DNA of 36,764 bases, from assembly GCA_022564935.1 (NCBI GenBank), contig JADFKM010000013.1, positions 1-36,764 on the forward strand, in the 5' to 3' direction. The stretch is from Candidatus Dadabacteria bacterium. GTDB taxonomy: Bacteria > Desulfobacterota_D > UBA1144 > Nemesobacterales > JADFKM01. The notes under the pieces were generated by a model. That model searched no databases, was not told where the DNA came from, and worked only from the letters and a program-made list of their open reading frames with translations. The position numbers and the translations under genes were made by a program. Of the stretch, positions 2,617 to 28,023 are shown one piece after another; position 1 is the first letter of the stretch, and every line of letters starts with the position of its first letter.

Positions 2617-3573
2617 ATGAGCAGCGCGACAGATATAAAGAACCACTATAAGGTAGCGATAATAGGCTCCGGCCCGGCGGGGCTCACTGCGGCAATTTAT
2701 GCGGGAAGGGCTGACCTGGAGACCATTGTGTTTGAAGGGCTTCAGGCTGGCGGGCAGCTGACCATTACGACCGATGTTGAGAACTACCCTGGGTTTGAAG
2801 ACGGCATAATGGGTCCCGAGTTGATGGACAAATTTAGAAAGCAGGCAGAAAGGTTCGGAGCTCACTGTGTGCTAAGGGAGGTAACTAAGGTAGACATGTC
2901 TGGTAGACCCTTTAAGATCGAGTCAGGAGATATTTCGCTCGAGGCCGAAACGTTGATCATCACTTCGGGGGCTTCCGCAAAGCTGCTCGGTCTGGAATCG
3001 GAAATGAGGCTCATGGGTCACGGCGTGTCGGCTTGCGCCACGTGCGACGGGTTTTTCTTCAAGGACAAGGAGCTTATAGTCGTGGGCGGCGGGGATACCG
3101 CAATGGAAGAGGCGATGTTTCTTACAAAGTTCGCATCCAAAGTCCACGTCGTTCATAGAAGAGATAAGTTAAGGGCTTCTAAAATCATGCAGCAAAAAGC
3201 CTTTAAAAATGAAAAGATCGAGTTCATCTGGGATGTGGTAGTTGAGGAGATAGTCGGAGATAAAGATGGCGGCGTCACCGGGGCGAGACTGAAGAACGTA
3301 AAGACCGGAGAGGTCTGGGAAAAGGATTGCCAGGGGGTGTTTCTCGCCATAGGCCACAGCCCCAACACAGGGCTTTTTGAGGGACAGCTTGAGATGGATA
3401 GGGTTGGATATATCGTTACAAAAGACGGCTCTACCCTGACGAGCGTCGAGGGTGTGTTTGCCGCAGGCGATGTACAGGATTCAAATTACAGGCAGGCCGT
3501 AACCGCTGCAGGCACCGGCTGCATGGCGGCGATGGATGCCGAGAAGTTTCTCGAAGAAAAGGGGATATCTTAA
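2617..3573 (+). CDS. trxB: Thioredoxin reductase (NADPH, FAD-dependent)
   Basis: 318 residues, the normal length for low-molecular-weight bacterial TrxB. It uses NADPH to reduce thioredoxin in the cytoplasm, feeding ribonucleotide reductase, peroxiredoxins and other thiol systems. The FAD-binding GSGPAG is at residues 17-22, the redox-active CATC at 140-143, the NADPH-binding GGGDTAMEE at about 157-165 with the phosphate-binding HRR at 180-182, and the second FAD motif AAGD at 282-285. All key residues are intact. The gene stands alone; its partner here may be the thioredoxin-fold protein at 13930-14469, or nrdJ, which needs thioredoxin-type reductant. The SD before the ATG is weak (GGATG). 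Confidence 0.96.
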
Positions 3574-3656: not shown

Positions 3657-5120
3657 TTACTCTCCCCTCACCCTCTTTAGAGCCGGCTTGAGGAGGTTTG
3701 GATGGTATCGGCTCACTTCTTCTGCAAGAGTGGTTATCACGTTTTTGATGTCCCACTGTGCGCCTTCCGATGTGCGTAGATTTATCAGGTGGTAAAGCTC
3801 CCACAGGTCGAAGCTTCCCATGACCCTTCTCAGGTGGGCGTTTGTAACGACGTAGCTTGCAACGGTGTGTAGACTCTCGTTCATCAGTTTTCCGTACAGT
3901 TCCTCGCTATTCTTTACGACTCGGGCTAAAACTTCCTCAAGGCCTGAGCTTACGATGCTCGGCGGAGTGAGGTAGCCGTGTATAACGGTAGGTTCTTGAG
4001 TAATCCACTTGACTTTCCTGTGACGCAGCAGCTGGTGCCAGCATGCCTCGCTCACCACGAACTCGGCCCTGTAATTGACGAGCCTCAGGGCTTCGGCAGG
4101 GTTGTCGAACTTTCCCATTTTCTCGATCGATTGCTTGAATACAGCCGTCAGATGCCCGGGGTCTTTACCTTCAAGAAGCTCCGAAACTTCCCGATGAGAG
4201 AGGTTCGAATATGAAAAAATTACCGAGCTGACTATGACCTCGAGCGCTTCGGTCTCCGGAGTGTCGCTGTGTGCGCCCGTCCAGTCGAGAAGCGTTACGC
4301 CAGTGCTGTTTTTGCCGTGCTCTTGTTTCGTAATATCTTGGCACATGCTCGTGAGCTCTTTGGCTGTTTCCACAATGTATGGACTCGGATTAGCGTACTT
4401 AACAAGGGTCGGAACGGAAAAACTCACTTCGTCTTTGATCTCTTCGGCCCGCAGTCTCGCTTCGGGATAAGGGCTCGAGAGCAGCTTGGACAGTGCGTCC
4501 TCAAGCGCCCTAGCGTTTCCCGTCATTCCAAGGTTCGTGAATGTGCTGAGGCCCAGCGCATACCGGGCGTCCTCGAAAGCCAGTTTTTCAAGCGCCCTGA
4601 AATGGGTTTTTTCTTCCCTTCCTTCCGGCGCTGGGCTTTCTTTCTTGAGCCATTCAAAAAGCCCCTCGTTGAGCTCTGAGTATGCCTCGTAGAGGGAGTC
4701 GTTAAGACGGGTGTATTCGCTCTTTAGAGCCGGCCGGCCGTCCAGTTCGGGGGGTATGAAGAAATCCCCTCTCTGCGGCTTCTGGTACCTCTGTGAATAC
4801 TCGGTGAAGGAGAGGAACTCGTTTGTGAGCTCAAGGAGGGAAGAGAACAGCCTTGAGACCCTCTCGACTCCGACGTGGACCGAGGCGTGCTCGGCCACGG
4901 ATGCATGGCCGTAATGCAGCACCCACTTTTCGTGGAATTTTATCGCCCTCTCCCTGCCGTGCTGCTCCTCTTCTATAACGGTAGAGATGTTATCCCTGAA
5001 GCTCTTGGGACTCCTGCTCACGTAAGCGAATATAACGGCGATTACCTCTTCGGGCAGGTTGCTTACCGTGTAAATGTCCCTGTCTGTATTAGACACGTAT
5101 TTGTTTATATCCGGGGGCAT
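3657..5120 (-). CDS. Tandem ThyX-like (flavin-dependent thymidylate synthase family) protein, non-canonical
   Basis: 487 residues, about twice the usual ThyX length (210-250). Two ThyX-like modules are visible. The N-terminal one has GHASVAEHA (71-79) and a degenerate signature region ending EYSQRY (107-112). The C-terminal one has CWHQLLRHRKVKWITQEP (360-377), where canonical ThyX has RHRxxSxNExSxRY, and ends with ELYHLINLRTSEGAQWDIKN (441-460), which keeps the R...AQ.EI pattern of the dUMP/FAD pocket. ThyX makes dTMP from dUMP using FAD, NADPH and methylene-tetrahydrofolate. Here neither module carries the full signature, so thymidylate synthesis is not assured; another flavin-dependent nucleotide reaction is possible. 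It sits convergently with trxB and downstream of the LLM oxidoreductase on the same strand. Confidence 0.75.
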   Translation of the reverse strand: MPPDINKYVSNTDRDIYTVSNLPEEVIAVIFAYVSRSPKSFRDNISTVIEEEQHGRERAIKFHEKWVLHYGHASVAEHASVHVGVERVSRLFSSLLELTNEFLSFTEYSQRYQKPQRGDFFIPPELDGRPALKSEYTRLNDSLYEAYSELNEGLFEWLKKESPAPEGREEKTHFRALEKLAFEDARYALGLSTFTNLGMTGNARALEDALSKLLSSPYPEARLRAEEIKDEVSFSVPTLVKYANPSPYIVETAKELTSMCQDITKQEHGKNSTGVTLLDWTGAHSDTPETEALEVIVSSVIFSYSNLSHREVSELLEGKDPGHLTAVFKQSIEKMGKFDNPAEALRLVNYRAEFVVSEACWHQLLRHRKVKWITQEPTVIHGYLTPPSIVSSGLEEVLARVVKNSEELYGKLMNESLHTVASYVVTNAHLRRVMGSFDLWELYHLINLRTSEGAQWDIKNVITTLAEEVSRYHPNLLKPALKRVRGE

Positions 5121-6641: not shown

Positions 6642-6884
6642 CTAAATCACTCCGAATAGCGCCCCGGCCGCATATTTTGCAAACTGTACGCTGCTTGCGG
6701 AGCTGAGGGCGTCCCCCTTCTTGCTGTCAAGAGCCCTGTATTCGTCAATCCTGGAGTAGAGGCTGTCGTCCCGAGAGCTGCACTGTTCAATGAAGCCCTC
6801 CATGAAGGTCTGTACCTTCTCAGGGTCGCGTAGATGACCGTTCGTCCTTTCAATCAGCTCAAACTCAGATGGGGAATTGCTCAC
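6642..6884 (-). CDS. Small hypothetical protein
   Basis: 80 residues from a GTG start, with no clear SD. The protein is acidic and helical (FELIERTNGHLRDPEKVQTF, then DDSLYSRIDEYRALDSKKG) and ends in a short hydrophobic stretch (FAKYAAGALFGVI). I do not recognise a family. The reading frame has protein-like amino-acid composition, but the weak start and lack of homology knowledge leave it uncertain. It may be a remnant. Confidence 0.3.
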   Translation of the reverse strand: MSNSPSEFELIERTNGHLRDPEKVQTFMEGFIEQCSSRDDSLYSRIDEYRALDSKKGDALSSASSVQFAKYAAGALFGVI

Positions 6885-7174: not shown

Positions 7175-7490
7175 ATGGCATTAAAATGTCCAACGGGATT
7201 TGATAAGGAATACCTGCGCGACGAGGTGCGCAAAATGTATGACCGCGTGGCTAGCGAGCCGGACGGGGATTTCCACTTCCACCGCGGCCCGGAATATGCG
7301 GTCGAGTACCTCCGCTACGACCGCGACGAACTCATCTCGCTTCGCAGATGTGGGCAACCCGCACCTCATCGGGGATATAGGGCCGGGTCAGACCGTGCTT
7401 GACCATGCGTGCGGGGCCGGAATGGACCTGCTTCTTGCCGCCCGGAAAGTCGGCCCAGAGGGGCGCGCGTTATTTGAGGAATCGGATTAA
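7175..7490 (+). pseudogene. Frameshifted and truncated ArsM-like SAM methyltransferase
   Basis: The first frame encodes MALKCPTGFDKEYLRDEVRK up to YLRYDRDELISL. The adjacent frame then continues FADVGNPHLIGDIGPGQTVLD, then HACGAGMDLLLAARKVGPEG. Together this reproduces the N-terminal part of arsenite-methyltransferase-like enzymes (Y.RYD..EL...ADVGNPH...GETVLDLGSGAGxDxLLAAR). A frameshift lies near 7340, and the protein stops about 10 residues after the SAM-binding glycine loop, losing the rest of the Rossmann fold. In the glycine loop 'DHACGAG' replaces the usual DLGSGAG/DLGCGTG. A strong SD (AAAGGAG) still precedes the ATG, so the break is probably not ancient. Confidence 0.65.
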
Positions 7491-8280: not shown

Positions 8281-8305
8281 TGGCCGGGTCTGTTTGGTTC
8301 GAAAC
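8281..8305 (-). repeat. Degenerate tRNA-Gln 3'-end copy (second remnant)
   Basis: Aligned without gaps to the 3' end of the tRNA-Gln gene (12040-12064), 18 of 25 bases agree, including the CCA end, part of the acceptor strand and the TTCGAA T-loop core. By itself this is weak. It is supported by position: it sits 27 bases beyond the end of the shared DUF924 block, as the better remnant at 11317-11341 does (29 bases). Confidence 0.4.
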
Positions 8306-8332
8306 TGTAAAAATGGCGACAAAATCTAGTTG

Positions 8333-8431
8333 ACTCTACTGCCCGAAGCTCTTGTGCTCGCCTCGAAGGTACTGCTCTTCTTCCTCGGTAGAGCGGCGTC
8401 CCAGCGCCTTGTTTCTGTGCGGGAACCTGCC
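8333..8431. repeat. 99-bp direct repeat, copy A (3' end of DUF924)
   Basis: Nearly identical to 11371-11469: only two mismatches over 99 bases by eye. Beyond 8431 the two copies diverge quickly although they still encode homologous protein. The pattern suggests recent gene conversion or recombination confined to this end. Confidence 0.85.
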
Positions 8432-8563
8432 AAGCCTCTCGATGATGGCCTTGTGCATCAGCGCCCACTTGAGGCTCGCTTGAACCACATCTTTTTTATC
8501 CGGCGCAACGGCCTGTAGCATCTCTTCGTGCGGCTCGACGCACATAGACCTATCTCCGATATT
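8336..8563 (-). pseudogene. C-terminal fragment of a second DUF924 gene
   Basis: About 75 codons homologous to the last third of the intact DUF924 protein encoded at 11374-11979: NIGDRSMCVEPHEEML here against NLGDQVLCVALHEEML there, and an identical end RGEHKSFGQ. Similarity stops near position 8563, upstream of which the frame has no DUF924 sequence, so the N-terminal two thirds are lost. The fragment lies 68 bases beyond the antiporter stop on the same strand. It is a paralogue relic rather than a new duplicate, because its upper part differs at many residues. Confidence 0.75.
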
Positions 8564-8631
8564 TACCAGGGGGAATACTCGCTTAACGTTTGATTGCCTT
8601 AAATAAGGGGAGCGGTATAAAGGAAGAGTTC

Positions 8632-10620
8632 TTATTTATCCTTGGCAAGGGTTAGTTCCGAGAGGTTGTTTATTTGCTCCGGCGACCCCATCACTATCAG
8701 CACGTCCCCCGCATGGAGCACGGTATCGGCATCGGGGTTTGCAATTGTTTTAGAGTCCCGGTTTATTGCGAGCAAATTCACGCCGTAGTTGCTTCTCAAA
8801 AGTATTTCGGCCGGGGTTTTTCCCGAAACAAAGGAATTCTCACTCACCCTAAGTGAGCAAATCTCCACATCCGAGAGGTGAAGAGAGAGGTCTTTGAGAG
8901 AACTCGTTAACTTCGGAGAACGAAGCATTTCGTATCCCTCAGCCCTAATCATGGTTGAAAATTTCTTAATCTCGTCCCTCGGTATCAGGTATTTAGTAAG
9001 CACCGTGGTAAAGATTTCAATTGAAGCTTCAAATTCCTCGGTTATCACCTCATCGGCCCCTAGTTCCCGGAGCGGTTTTATCTCGTCGTTGAACCTGGTT
9101 CGGGCAATAATATACGCGCTCGGATTTCTACCCCTTACTGCCGATATTACTCTCCTGGACGCCGTGGGATCGGATATTACGATAACGACCACTCTTGCGC
9201 CGCTTATCCCCACATGGTCTAAAGAGGTTTCATACACCGCATCGCCGAAGAAGATAGGCTCTCCCTTTTCCTTTTCGCTTTTCACGGTGTCCACATTCAT
9301 TTCGATGATCGTATACGGAATTTTGGCGACTCGAGCCGCTCTAGCCAGATTTCTGCCTCCGAGACCGAACCCGATTATTACCAGATGGTCTTTCAACACT
9401 TTTGTGACGGACTCAGATTCGATGGGTGCAGCTCCTCCCTTAATGCGCTCTGGAAACGGCAGCGCGGAAACAAAGGTCGAAATTCTCGGAGCCAGGGAGA
9501 TTATGAAGGGCGCCCCTATCATGGTCAGCACCGTTACGCTCAGAAATATCTGGTAGTGGTCACCGGCAAAAAGACCATTCTCAAGGCCTACGCGAGACAG
9601 GATAAACGAGAATTCGCCCACCTGGCTCAATATAATGGCAACGAGGATAGTGGTGCGGATCGGGAGACCCAAGAGCAAGGCGGCTACGCCCGAAGTAAGG
9701 GTTTTCAGCAGCAGGACACAAACCGTGACGGAGAGGATGAGAACCGGAGCGGATACGGCAAACTTCAGGTTGAGAAGCATGCCTATGGAGATAAAAAAGA
9801 AGCTCGTGAACACGTCGCGAAACGGTATTATGTTGCCCAGCGCCCAGTGAGAATATTCCGATTCAGACACGATAAGCCCGGCGAGGAATGCGCCGAGCGC
9901 CAGTGAAAGACCTACGCTGGATGTAATCCAGGCTATAGCAAAGCAAACCGTGAGGATAGCGAGCAGAAACAGCTCGCGGCTTTTGGTTTTGGCTATCTGA
10001 AAGAACAGAACCGGGATTATGAGCCTGGCGCTTACAATGAGCACTATGACCACGACTGCCGCTTTTGCAATGAAGAGTATGGGAGATGATCCTACGGCGC
10101 TCCCGGCGCCGGACATAATTGGGATGAGGAGCATCATGGGCACGATCATGATGTCCTGGAATATGAGAATTGCTAAGGACGTTTTCCCGTGCGGGCTGTC
10201 AACCTCTGCCTTTTCTTGAAGGAGTTTAAGCACAATGACGGTGCTGCTCAGGCTCAATAGGAAGCCCGCGAACACCGCTTGCGCTGTAGTAAGACCTATC
10301 AGTTTTGCTATGCCGAAAGCCGCGATTATGGTCAGGAGTACTTGAAGCGAGCCCCCAAGCAGAACAGACTTTTTGATCCGCAAAATGCTTTCGAGCGAAA
10401 ATTCAATACCGATCGTAAATAGAAGCAGCACGACCCCGATTTCGGCCAATAACTCGACCTCGTGAACCGCGCTTATCAGACCGAAGCCGTGGGGGCCCGC
10501 AAGCACGCCGGTGAGCAAAAAGCCGACAATGGTAGGGATCCTCAGCCGTTGGAACACCATGATAACGACTATTGAAAGGGAGAAAATTACGACAATATCG
10601 GCAAGAAGGGGTATTTCCAT
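8632..10620 (-). CDS. CPA2-family cation:proton antiporter with RCK (TrkA-N/TrkA-C) domains, Kef-type
   Basis: 662 residues. An inner-membrane monovalent cation/proton antiporter or K+ efflux protein. Residues about 5-385 form a 12-13 helix Na+/H+-exchanger domain with FQDIMIVP (154-161), the conserved acidic site of CPA2 carriers. Residues 412-540 form a TrkA-N/RCK domain with the nucleotide loop GFGLGG (417-422) and ribose-binding E440. Residues about 575-655 form a TrkA-C domain (SLRVSENSFVSGKTPAEILL, then ending GDVLIVMGSPE). This architecture is that of KefB/KefC/YbaL and related proteins gated by nucleotide or thiol adducts. No KefF/KefG ancillary gene is adjacent, so gating is unknown. 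The gene lies inside the region bounded by tRNA-Gln 3'-end remnants. Confidence 0.92.
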   Translation of the reverse strand: MEIPLLADIVVIFSLSIVVIMVFQRLRIPTIVGFLLTGVLAGPHGFGLISAVHEVELLAEIGVVLLLFTIGIEFSLESILRIKKSVLLGGSLQVLLTIIAAFGIAKLIGLTTAQAVFAGFLLSLSSTVIVLKLLQEKAEVDSPHGKTSLAILIFQDIMIVPMMLLIPIMSGAGSAVGSSPILFIAKAAVVVIVLIVSARLIIPVLFFQIAKTKSRELFLLAILTVCFAIAWITSSVGLSLALGAFLAGLIVSESEYSHWALGNIIPFRDVFTSFFFISIGMLLNLKFAVSAPVLILSVTVCVLLLKTLTSGVAALLLGLPIRTTILVAIILSQVGEFSFILSRVGLENGLFAGDHYQIFLSVTVLTMIGAPFIISLAPRISTFVSALPFPERIKGGAAPIESESVTKVLKDHLVIIGFGLGGRNLARAARVAKIPYTIIEMNVDTVKSEKEKGEPIFFGDAVYETSLDHVGISGARVVVIVISDPTASRRVISAVRGRNPSAYIIARTRFNDEIKPLRELGADEVITEEFEASIEIFTTVLTKYLIPRDEIKKFSTMIRAEGYEMLRSPKLTSSLKDLSLHLSDVEICSLRVSENSFVSGKTPAEILLRSNYGVNLLAINRDSKTIANPDADTVLHAGDVLIVMGSPEQINNLSELTLAKDK

Positions 10621-10840
10621 AAATGTTATGTCCCATCAGACATTTGTAATATTGTACTAGTTTATGTAAGCATCCCAAAAAGGGGACAGTCCACAGAACT
10701 GCAGCGAGCCTGTATGGCCCGGCTCAAATTAAAATAGTTTTGCGAGAGAACCGTACCCGCCGAAAGTGATTGCAAACTTTATGAATTGATTTGCTGAACT
10801 AAAATGTCAGGAGGGGGAAGATAAGTTTTAGGGGATTTTA

Positions 10841-11227
10841 TTATCTATAACCTCGAATTACCCCGGGAAACTCAGCTTTTCTACCATCGAGGGAAATTAC
10901 CGTTCCTCGGGAACGAAGGGCATATCCATATTCTATTAACACATTAGGATTGGGTGTGGATTTGTTACTGTCTGTCTTACCCACAATAGATAGGTCAGAA
11001 ACAAATATGTTGCAGCCTTTAATTTTTCCTAAAATGATATCCGTTATTGGGGGAGAACCGGGGGTATTTTTAGTATCGTAGTCTAACTCTAACTCATCGA
11101 AATCATCGGAAGATTTGCTTAACTCTTCATTAATTTCTTTGACTACATCTTCTAATGTTTCTCGAATGAAATCCTTATTTGTCTCCGCTGGTAAATCACT
11201 TTGCCAAGCGTAAAAAATTTTCGCCAT
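10841..11227 (-). CDS. Truncated 'WQSD...NVLIEYGYAL' nucleotide-binding/TIR-like protein
   Basis: 128 residues. It begins MAKIFYAWQSDLPAETNKDF, has LDYDTKNTPGSPPITDIILG and GCNIFVSDLSIVG, and then PNPNVLIEYGYALRS. I recognise these as hallmarks of a widespread family of small Rossmann-like proteins, related in layout to TIR/nucleotide-hydrolase folds and found in accessory and defence regions; this assignment is from memory. After EYGYALRS the sequence stops resembling the family and ends 22 residues later, whereas relatives continue considerably further. The gene is therefore probably truncated or frameshifted near 10910. SD AGAGGA is 9 bases upstream of the start. Catalytic competence is doubtful. 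Confidence 0.55.
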   Translation of the reverse strand: MAKIFYAWQSDLPAETNKDFIRETLEDVVKEINEELSKSSDDFDELELDYDTKNTPGSPPITDIILGKIKGCNIFVSDLSIVGKTDSNKSTPNPNVLIEYGYALRSRGTVISLDGRKAEFPGVIRGYR

Positions 11228-11316
11228 GTCATATGTCCTCTTAAAAATACTTACACTTAATTCCGCATTACCAAATTATAGATAATGGCTGCGCTAATTG
11301 ATAGGCTTTTCAAGGA

Positions 11317-11341
11317 TGGCCGGGGCGTGTGGATTCGAACC
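11317..11341 (-). repeat. tRNA-Gln 3'-end copy (first remnant), att-like
   Basis: 23 of 25 bases match the tRNA-Gln 3' end at 12040-12064, covering the T-loop (TTCGAA), the T-stem 3' side, the acceptor strand and the encoded CCA, in the same orientation. The 5' parts of a tRNA are absent. Partial tRNA 3' ends in direct orientation are the classical product of site-specific integration into a tRNA gene. Here the copy bounds the DUF924 gene together with the intact tRNA. Confidence 0.75.
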
Positions 11342-11370
11342 TAAATAATCAGTGGCAAAAGTCCCTGACA

Positions 11371-11469
11371 ACTCTACTGCCCGAAGCTCTTGTGCTCGCC
11401 TCGAAGGTACCGCTCTTCTTCCTCAGTAGAGCGGCGTCCCAGCGCCTTGTTTCTGTGCGGGAACCTGCC
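11371..11469. repeat. 99-bp direct repeat, copy B (3' end of DUF924)
   Basis: Partner of 8333-8431 with two mismatches. It includes the stop codon and the last about 31 codons of the DUF924 gene. Confidence 0.85.
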
Positions 11470-11979
11470 GAATCTCTCAATAGTACCCTTGTGAATAAGC
11501 GCCCAATTGAGACTTTCCCGCACCACTTCTCTTTTATCCGGCGCGACGTCCTGCAGCATTTCTTCATGAAGCGCGACACACAACACCTGGTCGCCTAAGT
11601 TTTCTGAGTGTTCAAGCGGCATGTACAGGAACATCCTCTGGATAGGAGGCAGCGCCTTGTCGTGTCCCAGCTCTATGCCCTCCCTGCAAAGCTCAAGTGC
11701 TTTTTTATCGCCGGAGAAAGCCTCACCGGTTCCCCTGTAGATGTTCCGTGTGAACTGGTCGAGGAGGATGACGAGCGCCAGCCTGCCAGGGGCGCTCTTA
11801 CCCCAATGGTCGAGTGCGTTTCGGGATGCCCGCTCCACAAGGGAGCCGAACCTGGTTTTAATCTGCCTGTCTGTATCCTCATTTGACCCGAACCAGAACG
11901 AGCTCCTATCCTCAACGGTAAACCCGTCTCTAATCTCTCCGAACCAAAAGTCGATAACCTCTTTTATCTCTTGCTCCAT
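11374..11979 (-). CDS. DUF924 family protein
   Basis: 201 residues, full length for the family. It starts MEQEIKEVIDFWFGEIRDG (the family's FWFG motif at 12-15) and has LVILLDQFTRNIYRGTGEAF (about 89-108) and FLYMPLEHSE. The C-terminal third is HEEMLQDVAPDKREVVRESL followed by GRFPHRNKALGRRSTEEEE. The fold is an all-helical TPR-like bundle. The biochemical function is not established to my knowledge; the conserved D/Q/N/R/H residues suggest a small-molecule or phosphate ligand. It lies between tRNA-Gln and a tRNA 3'-end remnant, as a single-gene segment bounded by direct repeats. Confidence 0.9.
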   Translation of the reverse strand: MEQEIKEVIDFWFGEIRDGFTVEDRSSFWFGSNEDTDRQIKTRFGSLVERASRNALDHWGKSAPGRLALVILLDQFTRNIYRGTGEAFSGDKKALELCREGIELGHDKALPPIQRMFLYMPLEHSENLGDQVLCVALHEEMLQDVAPDKREVVRESLNWALIHKGTIERFGRFPHRNKALGRRSTEEEERYLRGEHKSFGQ

Positions 11980-12039
11980 TGGTTGGTGTTGTGGGTAAGC
12001 ATAAATTCCCAGGTTATAAGGGATGCGTCTAGCTTAGAA

Positions 12040-12113
12040 TGGCTGGGGCGGGTGGATTCGAACCACCATAACAGGCTCCAAAGGCCTGTGTCCTGCCATT
12101 AGACGACGCCCCA
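12040..12113 (-). tRNA. tRNA-Gln (anticodon UUG), CCA encoded
   Basis: Full cloverleaf on the minus strand. The acceptor TGGGGCG pairs with CGCCCCA. The anticodon arm CAGGC-CTTTGGA-GCCTG gives anticodon TTG. The T-arm GGTGG-TTCGAAT-CCACC and the D-arm with AATGGCAGG are present, followed by discriminator G and CCA. It begins 47 bases after the ispE stop, so it is probably transcribed with ispE. In many proteobacteria the order is ispE, tRNA-Gln, prs, rplY, pth; here prs is not next. Confidence 0.97.
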
Positions 12114-12159: not shown

Positions 12160-13023
12160 CTAGTACCTGTGCCACCCCTCGATTCCACGTGCCGAGTATA
12201 CCCCTAAAGTCGTGCTGTCCTTGAGGTATTCGTAGGCCTTTTTTGCGTCTCGGCAGACGGTGAACGCCCCGAACATCGTGGGGCCGCTCCCGCTCATAGA
12301 CACCCCATCGGGCTCAAGCCCCTCGAGCAGGCCCCTGAGCGATATTATCTCCGGGAACATCTCAATTGCGGGAGCTTCGAGGGCGTTGTCGAGCGGGATC
12401 TTTCCCTCCTTAAAAAGCGCTATGGTGTCCTCGATAATCGTTGGAGCGGGCGCGCCGCTTGAGATCTCGTCCCAGTGCTCGTACACGTCTTTGGTGGGTA
12501 CTTCGAGGTCGGGGTTGATCAGGACGTAATGAAGCAGAGGGAAGCCGGGCAGGAGCGTAATTTTTTCACCGATGCCCTCGATGAGGCTTGTCCTGGAATG
12601 GATGAAGAACGGTACGTCCGCTCCTATTCGGGCCGAAATGCCGATCAGCTCGTCCTCGCTGAATCTTTTATAGAGCTTATTGAGGCCGACGAGCACCGAG
12701 GCCGCGTTGCCGCTCCCCCCTCCGAGTCCGGCTTCTATGGGGATCCTTTTGTTTATTACTACATTGACTTTGAGCTCCAGGCCGCTTCGGTTTAGAAATT
12801 CTGCCGCGGCTCTGTGTGCCAGGTTTTCGCCGGGGACGGCGATATCAAGGCCCTTGGTTTCAATGTCGATCCCGCTTCCCTCCGTGGCCTCAATCCTAAC
12901 TTCGTCAAACAGGTCTACCGGCTGCATTATCGAGCGGATTTCGTGATAACCGTCCGGTCGTTTGCCCAGAACCTCAAGGGTGAGGTTGAGTTTTGCTGGA
13001 GAGAGTAAAGTTATAGAGTTCAT
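12160..13023 (-). CDS. ispE: 4-diphosphocytidyl-2-C-methyl-D-erythritol kinase
   Basis: 287 residues, normal length. A GHMP kinase that phosphorylates CDP-methylerythritol in the MEP pathway to isoprenoids. PAKLNLTLEVLGKRPDGYHE (9-28) holds catalytic K11. The ATP loop is GLGGGSGNAAS (99-109), D136 in RIGADVPFF is the catalytic aspartate, and MSGSGPT (243-249) is motif III. The ATP loop has GN where most homologues have SD/TD, a minor variation. The tRNA-Gln gene follows directly, matching the common ispE-tRNA-Gln arrangement. Confidence 0.96.
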   Translation of the reverse strand: MNSITLLSPAKLNLTLEVLGKRPDGYHEIRSIMQPVDLFDEVRIEATEGSGIDIETKGLDIAVPGENLAHRAAAEFLNRSGLELKVNVVINKRIPIEAGLGGGSGNAASVLVGLNKLYKRFSEDELIGISARIGADVPFFIHSRTSLIEGIGEKITLLPGFPLLHYVLINPDLEVPTKDVYEHWDEISSGAPAPTIIEDTIALFKEGKIPLDNALEAPAIEMFPEIISLRGLLEGLEPDGVSMSGSGPTMFGAFTVCRDAKKAYEYLKDSTTLGVYSARGIEGWHRY

Positions 13024-24936: not shown

Positions 24937-27900
24937 ATGCATACGCTCAATCTGAAACCCACACACAAAGCTTTAAAATCGTATTACAAAGGCCTTGAAG
25001 ATTACAATACCCTCAATGTCAATTATGAAGAAGCTGTAAAAGTGCCTTTTCAACATCTTCTGGAGCATTGCTCACGCCAGTTCAAATGGATTGTACAACC
25101 TGGTTATAAGATTCATCACCGCAATAATTCATATATCAGCGTAGATGCGGCGCTAATTGACGAATTCAATCTTACGCACGGATTTTGGGAAGCCAAAGAC
25201 ACAGACGACGACCTTGTCAAAGAGATAAAAAAGAAATTTGCTAAAGGTTATCCCAAAGACAATATCCTTTTTCAACAACCCGATAGAGCTATTCTATTTC
25301 AGAACGGCGAAGAGGTGCTTGACAAGGATATAACGAACCCAAGCAATCTCATAGAAATTCTTAAGCAATTCTTTGAGTACGCTCCTCCCGGCATCTGGGA
25401 TTGGAAAGAGGCGGTCTTAGAGTTCCAGGAGCGTGTACCTGAGCTTGCGGCCGGGCTGATTAAGTTAATTGAGGAGCAACGGAAGACTAACCGAGGTTTC
25501 GTAGAGGCTTTTTCAAACTTCATGAGCTTGTGCAGGCAGTCTTTAAATCCCAACCTATCTGAGAATGCGGTAGAAGAAATGTTGATACAGCACCTACTTA
25601 CAGAGCGGATTTTCAGAAGGGTATTCAACAACCCTGACTTTGCCAGACGCAACGTTATAGCAGTAGAGATAGAAAAAGTGATTGATGCGCTGACTTCCCA
25701 GGCATTCAGCCGTAAGGATTTTCTCGGCAATCTTGACCGCTTTTATGTAGCTATCGAGAATGCTGCGGAAACCATCGAGGATTTCTCAACTAAGCAGACA
25801 TTCCTCAACACGGTTTATGAAAAGTTCTTCCAGGGATTTTCAGTGAAAATGGCAGACACGCTCGGCATTATCTATACGCCTCAGCCCATAGTCGATTTTA
25901 TGATTAACAGCGTAGAGGACATACTTGAAAGAGAGTTTGGAAAGACCCTAAGCGACTCCGGCGTGCACATCCTCGACCCGTTCGTGGGGACGGGGAACTT
26001 CATCGTCAACATAATGAGGCGTATTTCTCCCACAAGACTGGAGGAGAAGTACAAAAACGAGCTTCACTGCAACGAGGTTATGCTGCTGCCTTACTACATC
26101 GCCTCAATGAATATCGAGCACGAATACTTCGAGCGAATGGGCAACTACCTGCCGTTTGAAGGCATATGTCTTGTTGATACGTTTGAGCTTGCCGAGCCTG
26201 TTGTTCAGAGAAAATTTGGGTTCATGACCCCTAAGAACACGGAGCGTGTTGAGAGACAGAAGCAAGCCCCGATTTTCGTGATTATTGCAAATCCGCCCTA
26301 CAATATGGGACAGATTAATGAAAACGACAACAATAAAAACCGTCAATATGAGACTATTGATAAGCGAGTTACCGACACTTACGCTGCGGATTCAAAAGCC
26401 CAATTACTAAACAAGCTGCAAGACCCTTATGTGAAGGCCATTCGTTGGGCTACCGATAGGATTGGCAATGAAGGAATAGTGGCTTATGTTACAAATAATA
26501 GTTTTTTAGATAATATCGCCTTTGATGGTATGCGCAGGCATTTGGGTGAGGACTTCTCAAGAATTTATGTTTTAGACCTGGGGGGAAACGTTAGGAAAAA
26601 CCCCAAGTTATCAGGAACTACCCATAATGTATTTGGAATACAAGTAGGAGTAAGTATCAATTTGTTTGTTATGAAGAACGATGCAAATAAACCAGATGAA
26701 GACACGATTTATTATTCACGGGTTGGTGAGTCCTGGCGGAAGGAAGAGAAATATAAATACCTTGAAAAGTCAGGAAATTACGTCCATGTTGATTGGCAGA
26801 CTATAGAACCCGACAAAAATCACACATGGCTTACCGAGGGTCTGCAATCCGACTTTGATGATCTGGTTCCCCTGGGCACAAAAGAAGCGAAAAAAGGAAA
26901 GGATTTGAATGCCGAAACCATCTTCAAGATGTTTAGTCTCGGAGTTTCAACTAATCGTGATCGGGTCGTATATGGTTTCGATAGAGTTTGTTTAAGTGAA
27001 AATGTTAAACACTTTTGTGCGGACTATAATGCTGAAGTTGTCAGATATCAATATGAGGGGAAAGACAAAAACTTGGATGATTTCTTAAATTATGAAAAGG
27101 TCAAATGGAGCGAGAATCTGAAGCGCGATCTTAGGAATAGTAGAAAGTTAAACTTTGATGACTCCTTAATCCGAATCTCACAATATCGTCCATTTAACAA
27201 GCTGTTTCTTTATTTCTCAAAGACTGCTATAGACAGGCTTTCTCATATGAAAAGAATTTTCCCTACACCCGAATCGGAAGAAGAAAACATGATAATATGT
27301 GTACCCAGTATTGGCGCTAGAACAGACTTTTGGTGCTTTTTTTCAAAGATAATTCCTAATTTAACGTTAACATCCCTAGATGGAACACAATGCTTCCCAT
27401 TCTACATCTACGACAAAGACGGTAGCAACTGTCGAGAAAATATAACGGACTGGGCGTTGGATGGATTCCGCTCGCAGTATGAAGACAAGTCCATTTCCAA
27501 ATGGGATATCTTCCACTACACCTATGCAATGCTCCACCATCCGGGCTATCGCGAGCGCTATGCCGCAAACCTGAGGCGCGCTTTACCACGTATCCCCTTT
27601 GCCCCGGTTTTCTGGACATTCGCGGAGGCCGGACAAAAACTCGCTGACTTGCACGTTAACTACGAAGACCAGCCTGAATACGATTTGGACGAGATAGTCA
27701 ACAGAGATGTCAAGTTCACCTGGCGCGTGGAAAAGATGAAGCTCAATAAAGAAAAGACCCACCTTATCTACAATGACTGCCTCACATTAGGCCCGATCCC
27801 GGAGAAGGCGTTTGAATACCGTCTGGGAAACCGCTCAGCGCTTGATTGGGTAATTGAGCAATACCGAGTGAAAACGGATAAAAGAAGCGGTATAACGGAT

Positions 27901-28023
27901 GACCCGAATAATGTGGAAGACGAGCAATATATCTACAAGCTAATCAAAAAAGTTATCGCCGTAAGCCTTGAGACGGTAGATATAGTTAATCCGCTGCATA
28001 AGCTTGATATTTTTCCGAATTAG
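24937..28023 (+). CDS. Single-chain Type ISP-like restriction-modification enzyme without helicase motor
   Basis: 1028 residues combining nuclease and N6-adenine methyltransferase. A PD-(D/E)xK-like nuclease motif is near the N-terminus: D70 in SVDAALIDE, then E85-x-K87 in FWEAKD. A helical linker covers about 100-300. The methyltransferase has SAM-binding motif I DPFVGTGNF (347-355) and catalytic NPPY (452-455), followed by a target-recognition region and the Type ISP C-terminal domain (FRSQYEDKSISKWDIFHYTY; HHPGYRERYAANLRRALPRI). LlaGI/LlaBIII-type enzymes are about 1570 residues because they carry a SF2 helicase between nuclease and methylase; no helicase motifs are visible here. It should methylate one strand and cut unmodified foreign DNA. 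There is no separate specificity gene. It is A+T-richer than its flanks, suggesting acquisition. Confidence 0.88.
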   Translation: MHTLNLKPTHKALKSYYKGLEDYNTLNVNYEEAVKVPFQHLLEHCSRQFKWIVQPGYKIHHRNNSYISVDAALIDEFNLTHGFWEAKDTDDDLVKEIKKKFAKGYPKDNILFQQPDRAILFQNGEEVLDKDITNPSNLIEILKQFFEYAPPGIWDWKEAVLEFQERVPELAAGLIKLIEEQRKTNRGFVEAFSNFMSLCRQSLNPNLSENAVEEMLIQHLLTERIFRRVFNNPDFARRNVIAVEIEKVIDALTSQAFSRKDFLGNLDRFYVAIENAAETIEDFSTKQTFLNTVYEKFFQGFSVKMADTLGIIYTPQPIVDFMINSVEDILEREFGKTLSDSGVHILDPFVGTGNFIVNIMRRISPTRLEEKYKNELHCNEVMLLPYYIASMNIEHEYFERMGNYLPFEGICLVDTFELAEPVVQRKFGFMTPKNTERVERQKQAPIFVIIANPPYNMGQINENDNNKNRQYETIDKRVTDTYAADSKAQLLNKLQDPYVKAIRWATDRIGNEGIVAYVTNNSFLDNIAFDGMRRHLGEDFSRIYVLDLGGNVRKNPKLSGTTHNVFGIQVGVSINLFVMKNDANKPDEDTIYYSRVGESWRKEEKYKYLEKSGNYVHVDWQTIEPDKNHTWLTEGLQSDFDDLVPLGTKEAKKGKDLNAETIFKMFSLGVSTNRDRVVYGFDRVCLSENVKHFCADYNAEVVRYQYEGKDKNLDDFLNYEKVKWSENLKRDLRNSRKLNFDDSLIRISQYRPFNKLFLYFSKTAIDRLSHMKRIFPTPESEEENMIICVPSIGARTDFWCFFSKIIPNLTLTSLDGTQCFPFYIYDKDGSNCRENITDWALDGFRSQYEDKSISKWDIFHYTYAMLHHPGYRERYAANLRRALPRIPFAPVFWTFAEAGQKLADLHVNYEDQPEYDLDEIVNRDVKFTWRVEKMKLNKEKTHLIYNDCLTLGPIPEKAFEYRLGNRSALDWVIEQYRVKTDKRSGITDDPNNVEDEQYIYKLIKKVIAVSLETVDIVNPLHKLDIFPN

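What the first reader, a model, noticed from the sequence alone, without database searches (positions are those of the whole stretch)
8281..12113. Array of segments bounded by tRNA-Gln 3'-end copies, without an integrase
Three same-orientation copies of the tRNA-Gln 3' end (intact at 12040, 23/25 at 11317, about 18/25 at 8281) divide the region into a 0.7-kb unit holding one DUF924 gene and a 3-kb unit holding a truncated TIR-like gene, a CPA2 antiporter and a DUF924 relic. This looks like successive integrations or tandem duplications at one tRNA gene, each leaving a tRNA end behind. The units carry no recombinase, so a mobilisable cassette scheme is possible. The sequence shows the copies; the mechanism is inference.
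Basis: partly seen in the sequence, partly recalled or inferred. Interest (0 to 1): 0.68.

Follow-up and report, generated by a model that had tools for sequence, protein, structure and literature searches.

The report
Decaying tRNA-Gln insertion array, no integrase
Behind one glutamine tRNA gene, a few genes sit between worn copies of that tRNA's tail, most likely scars of mobile DNA that repeatedly inserted there without an enzyme of its own; related bacteria show the same scars and matching untouched sites at their other glutamine tRNA gene, so the pattern is real but of a known kind.

Summary
tRNA-Gln(TTG) at 12040-12113(-) has same-strand copies of its last 25 nt at 11317 (2 mismatches) and 8281 (7 mismatches). 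At this stringency chance gives none per window. All copies end at CCA. The second and third lie in register within a duplicated DUF924 3' end, so they are one junction duplicated.

Relatives add the key evidence, at the other tRNA-Gln gene (CTG). G021 carries a 2,355-bp one-gene unit (an orthologue of the window's CPA2 antiporter) ending in a degenerate tRNA-Gln 3' end. Its same-genus relative G007 is empty there, and the flank continues from the CCA. G012 versus G024 shows the same with another gene (1,712 bp). Serine-recombinase relics abut this tRNA in G029, G037, G015 and the window's own genome, and five genomes share an att-like distal motif.

Best reading: accretion of small recombinase-less or decayed integrative units at tRNA-Gln, like CIMEs or module-less Dehalococcoides ssrA islands. 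At the window locus this remains inference: no recombinase relic or empty site was found, and local tandem duplication with gene conversion is not excluded. New member of a known kind.

The parts
12040..12113 (-). Intact tRNA-Gln (anticodon TTG); presumed attachment site of the array
   Evidence: ARAGORN; Rfam tRNA match; ispE-tRNA-Gln order conserved in nine relatives
11374..11979 (-). DUF924 gene, 201 aa, only gene of the 723-bp unit 11317-12039
   Evidence: Pfam PF06041 1e-63. Not sister to the DUF924 of the nearest family (AU p=0.0015) while ispE is (100/98)
11317..11341 (-). Copy 2 of the tRNA-Gln 3' end, 23/25; distal end of the 723-bp unit
   Evidence: second-best match of the tRNA 3' end in its own genome
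10841..11227 (-). Truncated TIR-domain gene, first 128 aa only, in an AT-rich stretch
   Evidence: tblastn to plasmid TIR/nucleotide-binding proteins, 37-48%; full-length homologues 357 and 406 aa; weak PF10137 hit; GC 0.42
8632..10620 (-). CPA2 (KefB/KefC-like) cation:proton antiporter, 662 aa, intact
   Evidence: Pfam and NCBIfam; 55-63% identical to orthologues in the nearest family, best plasmid hit 37%; orthologue in G021 is the sole gene of a tRNA-Gln(CTG)-bounded unit
8336..8566 (-). DUF924 relic, last ~76 codons plus stop
   Evidence: 77% aa identity to the intact gene; last 33 codons nearly identical at third positions (2 of 33 differ vs 23 of 44 upstream, Fisher p=1.5e-5)
8281..8305 (-). 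Copy 3 of the tRNA-Gln 3' end, 18/25; distal end of the 3036-bp unit
   Evidence: in register with copy 2 relative to the DUF924 3' ends (offset 3036 vs 3038)
12160..13023 (-). ispE, conserved chromosomal neighbour upstream of the tRNA (not part of the array; anchor)

Best explanation
A decayed accretion array at a tRNA attachment site. Small circular integrative units inserted at the 3' end of tRNA-Gln(TTG) by site-specific recombination. Each insertion kept the tRNA whole and pushed a copy of its 3' end to the far side of the insert. A unit ending in DUF924 came first (copy at 8281), with CPA2 and TIR material joined to it and its DUF924 later cut down. A second DUF924 unit of 723 bp came later (copy at 11317, fresher). 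The recombinase was either supplied in trans by another element or lost by decay, so what remains works at most like a cis-mobilizable element (CIME). Shown: the copies, their register and end points, the truncations, and, in relatives at the other tRNA-Gln gene, one-gene units with empty sites. Inferred: that the same process made the window array, the order of events, and the recombinase.
For: Copies exceed chance and end at CCA. G021 vs G007: 88.7% identity up to the CCA of tRNA-Gln(CTG), then a 2355-bp insert holding only a CPA2 orthologue and ending in a 19/25 tRNA-Gln 3' end, after which the flank matches what follows the tRNA in G007. G012 vs G024: 1712-bp one-gene insert ending in GGGGTTCGAAGTGTATCCAAGAGCCCCAGCCA, flank again homologous. 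That motif ends the array at tRNA-Gln(CTG) in five genomes with different cargo, and large-serine-recombinase C-terminal relics abut the tRNA in four of them, the own genome included. DUF924 tree discordant with ispE, which fits an acquired gene. TIR gene is of a plasmid-borne kind. Own genome has tyrosine integrases next to tRNA-His and tRNA-Ala, so tRNA-targeting elements occur in this lineage.
Against: No recombinase or relic at the TTG locus. No tRNA-end copy behind tRNA-Gln(TTG) in nine relatives. Copies 2 and 3 belong to one duplicated block, so only one independent tRNA-DUF924 junction is proven. The near-identical last ~100 nt of the two DUF924 3' ends points to gene conversion or homologous recombination between copies. 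CPA2 looks native (63% to the nearest family, where it sits at a fixed non-tRNA locus). DUF924, DUF3568, an SDF symporter and the B12 ribonucleotide reductase are neighbours in some relatives and all lie within 9 kb here, which suggests DUF924 may be a resident gene; the DUF924 tree does not reject order-wide vertical descent (p=0.22).
Confidence: 0.6

Rival explanations
1. Local tandem duplication. A stretch running from the tRNA-Gln 3' half through DUF924 was duplicated once or more by unequal or illegitimate recombination. The extra copies then decayed, and CPA2 and a TIR fragment arrived by ordinary rearrangement into the middle copy.
For: Copies 2 and 3 share the same DUF924-to-tRNA junction. 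The relic and gene are 86% alike and probably still exchanged sequence. CPA2 is a lineage gene. G040 shows that partial tRNA duplications around a CPA2 gene can also be of another kind, a 130-nt direct repeat of the tRNA-Leu(TAA) 5' half plus upstream DNA.
Against: The sequence after copy 2 shows no trace of the 60-nt leader or the start of DUF924 that a tandem duplicate should carry (P 0.37). All copies stop at CCA. G021/G007 and G012/G024 show precise insertions bounded by tRNA-Gln ends in the same order. DUF924 phylogeny is discordant.
Confidence: 0.25
2. Remains of one larger tRNA-Gln island (integrase-bearing, possibly reaching beyond copy 3) that lost its recombinase, with internal copies from later DUF924 duplication.
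For: The tRNA-Gln-uvrD interval varies from 46 bp to over 8.6 kb among relatives and is broken up in this genome. Serine-recombinase relics survive at the other tRNA-Gln gene.
Against: No recombinase trace at this locus. Two internal tRNA ends instead of one distal end. One-gene units exist as such in G021 and G012.
Confidence: 0.1
3. Chance or conserved sequence unrelated to the tRNA, or an assembly artefact.
For: Copy 3 alone is weak (7 of 25 mismatches), and the genome is a draft in 104 contigs.
Against: No shuffle reached that level. Copy 3 is in register with copy 2. Copies are diverged, so not a short-read misjoin of identical repeats. Independent cases in relatives.
Confidence: 0.03

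Closest known systems
ssrA-specific genomic islands of Dehalococcoides (PMC3146451)
   Same: Tandem islands behind one RNA gene, each ended by a ~20-bp copy of its 3' end. A serine recombinase lies next to the gene in about half; 15 of 31 islands lack the integration module and were called possible cis-mobilizable elements. A short conserved motif precedes the repeat and insertion is in the T-loop region.
   Different: There the target is tmRNA and the islands are larger, carrying reductive dehalogenases. Here the targets are two tRNA-Gln genes, units are 0.7-3 kb with one or few genes, and in the window no recombinase is left in any unit.
CIMEs and accretion of ICE/IME/CIME (reviewed in PMC5704250; Pavlovic et al. 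2004 as cited there)
   Same: att-flanked DNA without integration or transfer genes; arrays built by repeated insertion at the same tRNA-end att site.
   Different: No ICE or IME partner is known at this site; mobility not shown; copy 3 probably too decayed to work.
Additive flexible genomic islands with tRNA-Lys 3'-end repeats in Ca. Methylopumilus (PMC10872708)
   Same: Repeats of the last 20 nt of a tRNA precede islands from 330 bp with a single gene up to 42 kb.
   Different: Different tRNA and phylum; much longer and less decayed arrays.
Tycheposons (Hackl et al., known to me and cited in PMC10872708; the paper itself was not read)
   Same: tRNA-bounded cargo units, some depending on a helper.
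   Different: Carry tyrosine recombinases and are larger; none in the window.

Membership tests
CIME (cis-mobilizable element) | Flanked by attL and attR-like direct repeats | tested here: met
   tRNA 3' end and copy at 11317, 23/25; weaker for the outer unit (18/25)
CIME (cis-mobilizable element) | No recombinase or transfer genes inside | tested here: met
   ORFs and Pfam, recombinase tblastn
CIME (cis-mobilizable element) | Derived from an ICE/IME and still mobilizable by an incoming element | not testable with these tools
   No partner element at this site; no reads or experiments
tRNA-site integrated element | Precise insertion with empty site in a relative | tested here: inconclusive
   Met at tRNA-Gln(CTG) in G021/G007 and G012/G024; at the window's tRNA-Gln(TTG) no close relative exists in the collection
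tRNA-site integrated element | Recombinase gene at the tRNA-proximal end | tested here: not met
   DUF924 starts 60 bp after the tRNA; no recombinase relic at the TTG locus, though relics abut tRNA-Gln(CTG) in four genomes
Tycheposon | Tyrosine recombinase with cargo at a tRNA | tested here: not met
   No tyrosine recombinase in the window units
Integron-like cassette array | attC sites with an integron integrase | not tested
   No attC search was run; the boundaries are tRNA 3' ends, and no integrase was found in the array

The most novel reading that the evidence does not exclude
In this uncultured order, resident genes (above all one CPA2 antiporter family) are repeatedly captured as single-gene circles and set behind tRNA genes by a recombinase acting in trans, so that tRNA 3' ends serve as cassette boundaries much as attC sites do for integrons. 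CPA2 orthologues bounded by partial tRNA copies occur at three different tRNA genes: Gln-TTG (window), Gln-CTG (G021) and Leu-TAA (G040, different repeat type).
Probability: 0.1. Interest if true: 0.75.

Novelty: new member of a known kind. Interest (0 to 1): 0.45.

Why it matters
It documents, with empty sites, that very small recombinase-less units (one gene, 1.7-2.4 kb) enter tRNA-Gln genes in an uncultured bacterial order, and that relics of serine recombinases and a shared att-like motif remain next to one of these tRNAs. That makes the question of how genes without their own recombinase reach tRNA sites directly testable in these lineages. For the window itself it explains a patchwork of whole and broken genes as an old insertion site rather than a new system.

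Tried and rejected
Viral contigs hold no DUF924 relative, and the only exact tRNA-end match there is a tRNA-Asn. Phage records: only two Acinetobacter records match DUF924; no TIR match. Looking for the original right flank through uvrD failed: it lies on contig C64 with no tRNA remnant. DUF924 is not generally tied to tRNAs in relatives. The idea that DUF924 is plainly foreign was not carried: the tree rejects sisterhood with the nearest family but not order-wide vertical descent, and its old neighbours lie close by. CPA2 as plasmid-borne cargo was rejected (best plasmid hit 37%). A PADLOC scan of the units gave nothing useful.
Full report
Observation. The window is a whole contig (C88) of a 2.0-Mb draft genome. 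It has one tRNA gene, tRNA-Gln(TTG) at 12040-12113(-). Its last 25 nt recur on the same strand at 11317 with 2 mismatches and at 8281 with 7. Sixty shuffles of the window gave no match at 7 or fewer mismatches, and the whole genome gives only the tRNA and the 11317 copy at 3 or fewer. All three copies stop at GCCA; the 100 nt after them are not related to each other. Weaker similarity continues from the T-arm towards the anticodon loop in both copies (P 0.003-0.03).

Anatomy. Read on the minus strand: ispE, tRNA-Gln, DUF924 (201 aa), copy 2, a TIR-domain gene cut to 128 aa, an intact CPA2 antiporter, the last ~76 codons of a second DUF924, copy 3. TIR homologues are 357 and 406 aa and plasmid-borne, so the gene is broken. 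The two DUF924 3' ends and the tRNA ends that follow them are one duplicated block (86%, offsets 3036-3038). The two DUF924 sequences differ at 23 of 44 third positions upstream but only 2 of 33 in the last codons (p=1.5e-5), which suggests exchange between the copies. No recombinase or relic of one lies in the units.

Origin of the parts. ispE groups firmly with family f4 of the same order (100/98). CPA2 is closest to f4 orthologues (63%, 60%, 59%); its place in the tree is unresolved among them. In f4 it occupies a conserved spot beside an AMP-binding synthetase, mannose-1-phosphate guanylyltransferase, guanylate kinase and a RelA/SpoT-like gene, all named by eye from the translations. DUF924 is not sister to the f4 copies (AU p=0.0015), though order-wide vertical descent is not rejected (p=0.22). 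DUF924, DUF3568, an SDF-type symporter and the B12 ribonucleotide reductase are neighbours in relatives and lie within 9 kb here, so DUF924 may be an old resident. The evidence on DUF924 is mixed.

The TTG site in relatives. ispE-tRNA-Gln is conserved in nine genomes and usually followed by uvrD, 46 bp to 8.6 kb away. None has tRNA-end copies. In the window's genome uvrD is on contig C64 without a tRNA remnant. No genome of the same family is held, so an empty site for the window array could not be sought.

The CTG site in relatives. tRNA-Gln(CTG) beside a queF-like gene (named by eye) is conserved through most of the order. In G021 a CPA2 orthologue is the sole gene of a 2355-bp unit that ends in GGACGGAACCCAAGTGCCCCGGCCA, 19/25 to the tRNA end; no shuffle of that 12-kb stretch reached this. 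G007 of the same genus lacks the unit. The two genomes are 88.7% identical up to the CCA, and the sequence after the G021 copy aligns with the sequence after the G007 tRNA (local P<0.0005; 82% further out). In G012 a 1712-bp unit with one gene (an exported protein ending in an IPTL-CTERM-like signal, named by eye) ends in GGGGTTCGAAGTGTATCCAAGAGCCCCAGCCA; G024 of the same genus lacks it and the flanks correspond (P<0.0005). The polarity, insertion or precise excision, is open in both cases.

A recombinase for the CTG site. The motif GTTCGAAGTGTATnCAAnAgCCCCaGCCA ends the array behind tRNA-Gln(CTG) in G012, G015, G029, G037 and the window's own genome (C36), with different genes in between. C-terminal relics of a large serine recombinase start within 26 bp of the tRNA in G029, G037, G015 and the own genome (tblastn 3e-15 to 2e-178). 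So the CTG site was entered by serine-recombinase elements, and G012 carries a derivative without the recombinase. Nothing ties that enzyme to the TTG site.

Own-genome survey. With gaps allowed, three of 36 tRNAs have a 3'-end copy above shuffled controls within 8 kb: Gln-TTG (score 21), Arg-TCT (16) and Gln-CTG (12, marginal alone). Two tRNAs (His, Ala) have tyrosine integrases about 115 bp downstream, on contigs that end soon after.

Conclusion. The best-supported explanation for the window is accretion of small recombinase-less or decayed integrative units at tRNA-Gln(TTG), later eroded. It rests on the anatomy plus the shown cases at the sister tRNA gene. Local tandem duplication is the main rival. 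The arrangement works like the CIME arrays reviewed in PMC5704250, the module-less ssrA islands of Dehalococcoides (PMC3146451) and the tRNA-Lys-repeat additive islands of Methylopumilus (PMC10872708). Those precedents make it a new member of a known kind; mobility itself was not testable.

Noticed in passing
L144 (G040:C150) 1652-1824 and 4145-4274: A CPA2 orthologue in G040 is flanked by a 130-nt direct repeat (90%) of the tRNA-Leu(TAA) 5' half plus upstream DNA. With the window and G021 this makes three CPA2 genes bounded by partial tRNA copies at three different tRNA genes.
   Followed up: partly
L092 (G000:C34) tRNA-Arg(TCT) at 6650-6726 and ~282 nt downstream: A gapped copy of the tRNA-Arg 3' end follows the tRNA in the same genome (score 16 vs shuffled maximum 12); a tyrosine integrase sits by the next tRNA, tRNA-His, on that contig.
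   Followed up: no
copy 2, copy 3, G021 copy (L147:1621-1645), G015 copy: These copies read CCCGGCCA where the tRNA genes read CCCAGCCA; the shared A-to-G could be element-encoded att sequence.
   Followed up: no
window 24937-28023: Type ISP / type IIG restriction-modification enzyme (1028 aa) in an AT-rich stretch (GC about 0.42), probably another acquired region.
   Followed up: no
L199 (G029), L204 (G015), L206 (G012), L201 (G003): Further large serine recombinases lie beside tRNA-His (three genomes) and tRNA-Asn (one) in this order, so tRNA targeting by serine recombinases seems common here.
   Followed up: partly
window 7200-7490: Fragment that reads like the N-terminal part of a methyltransferase with a frameshift (seen by eye only), near the distal end of the array.
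   Followed up: no
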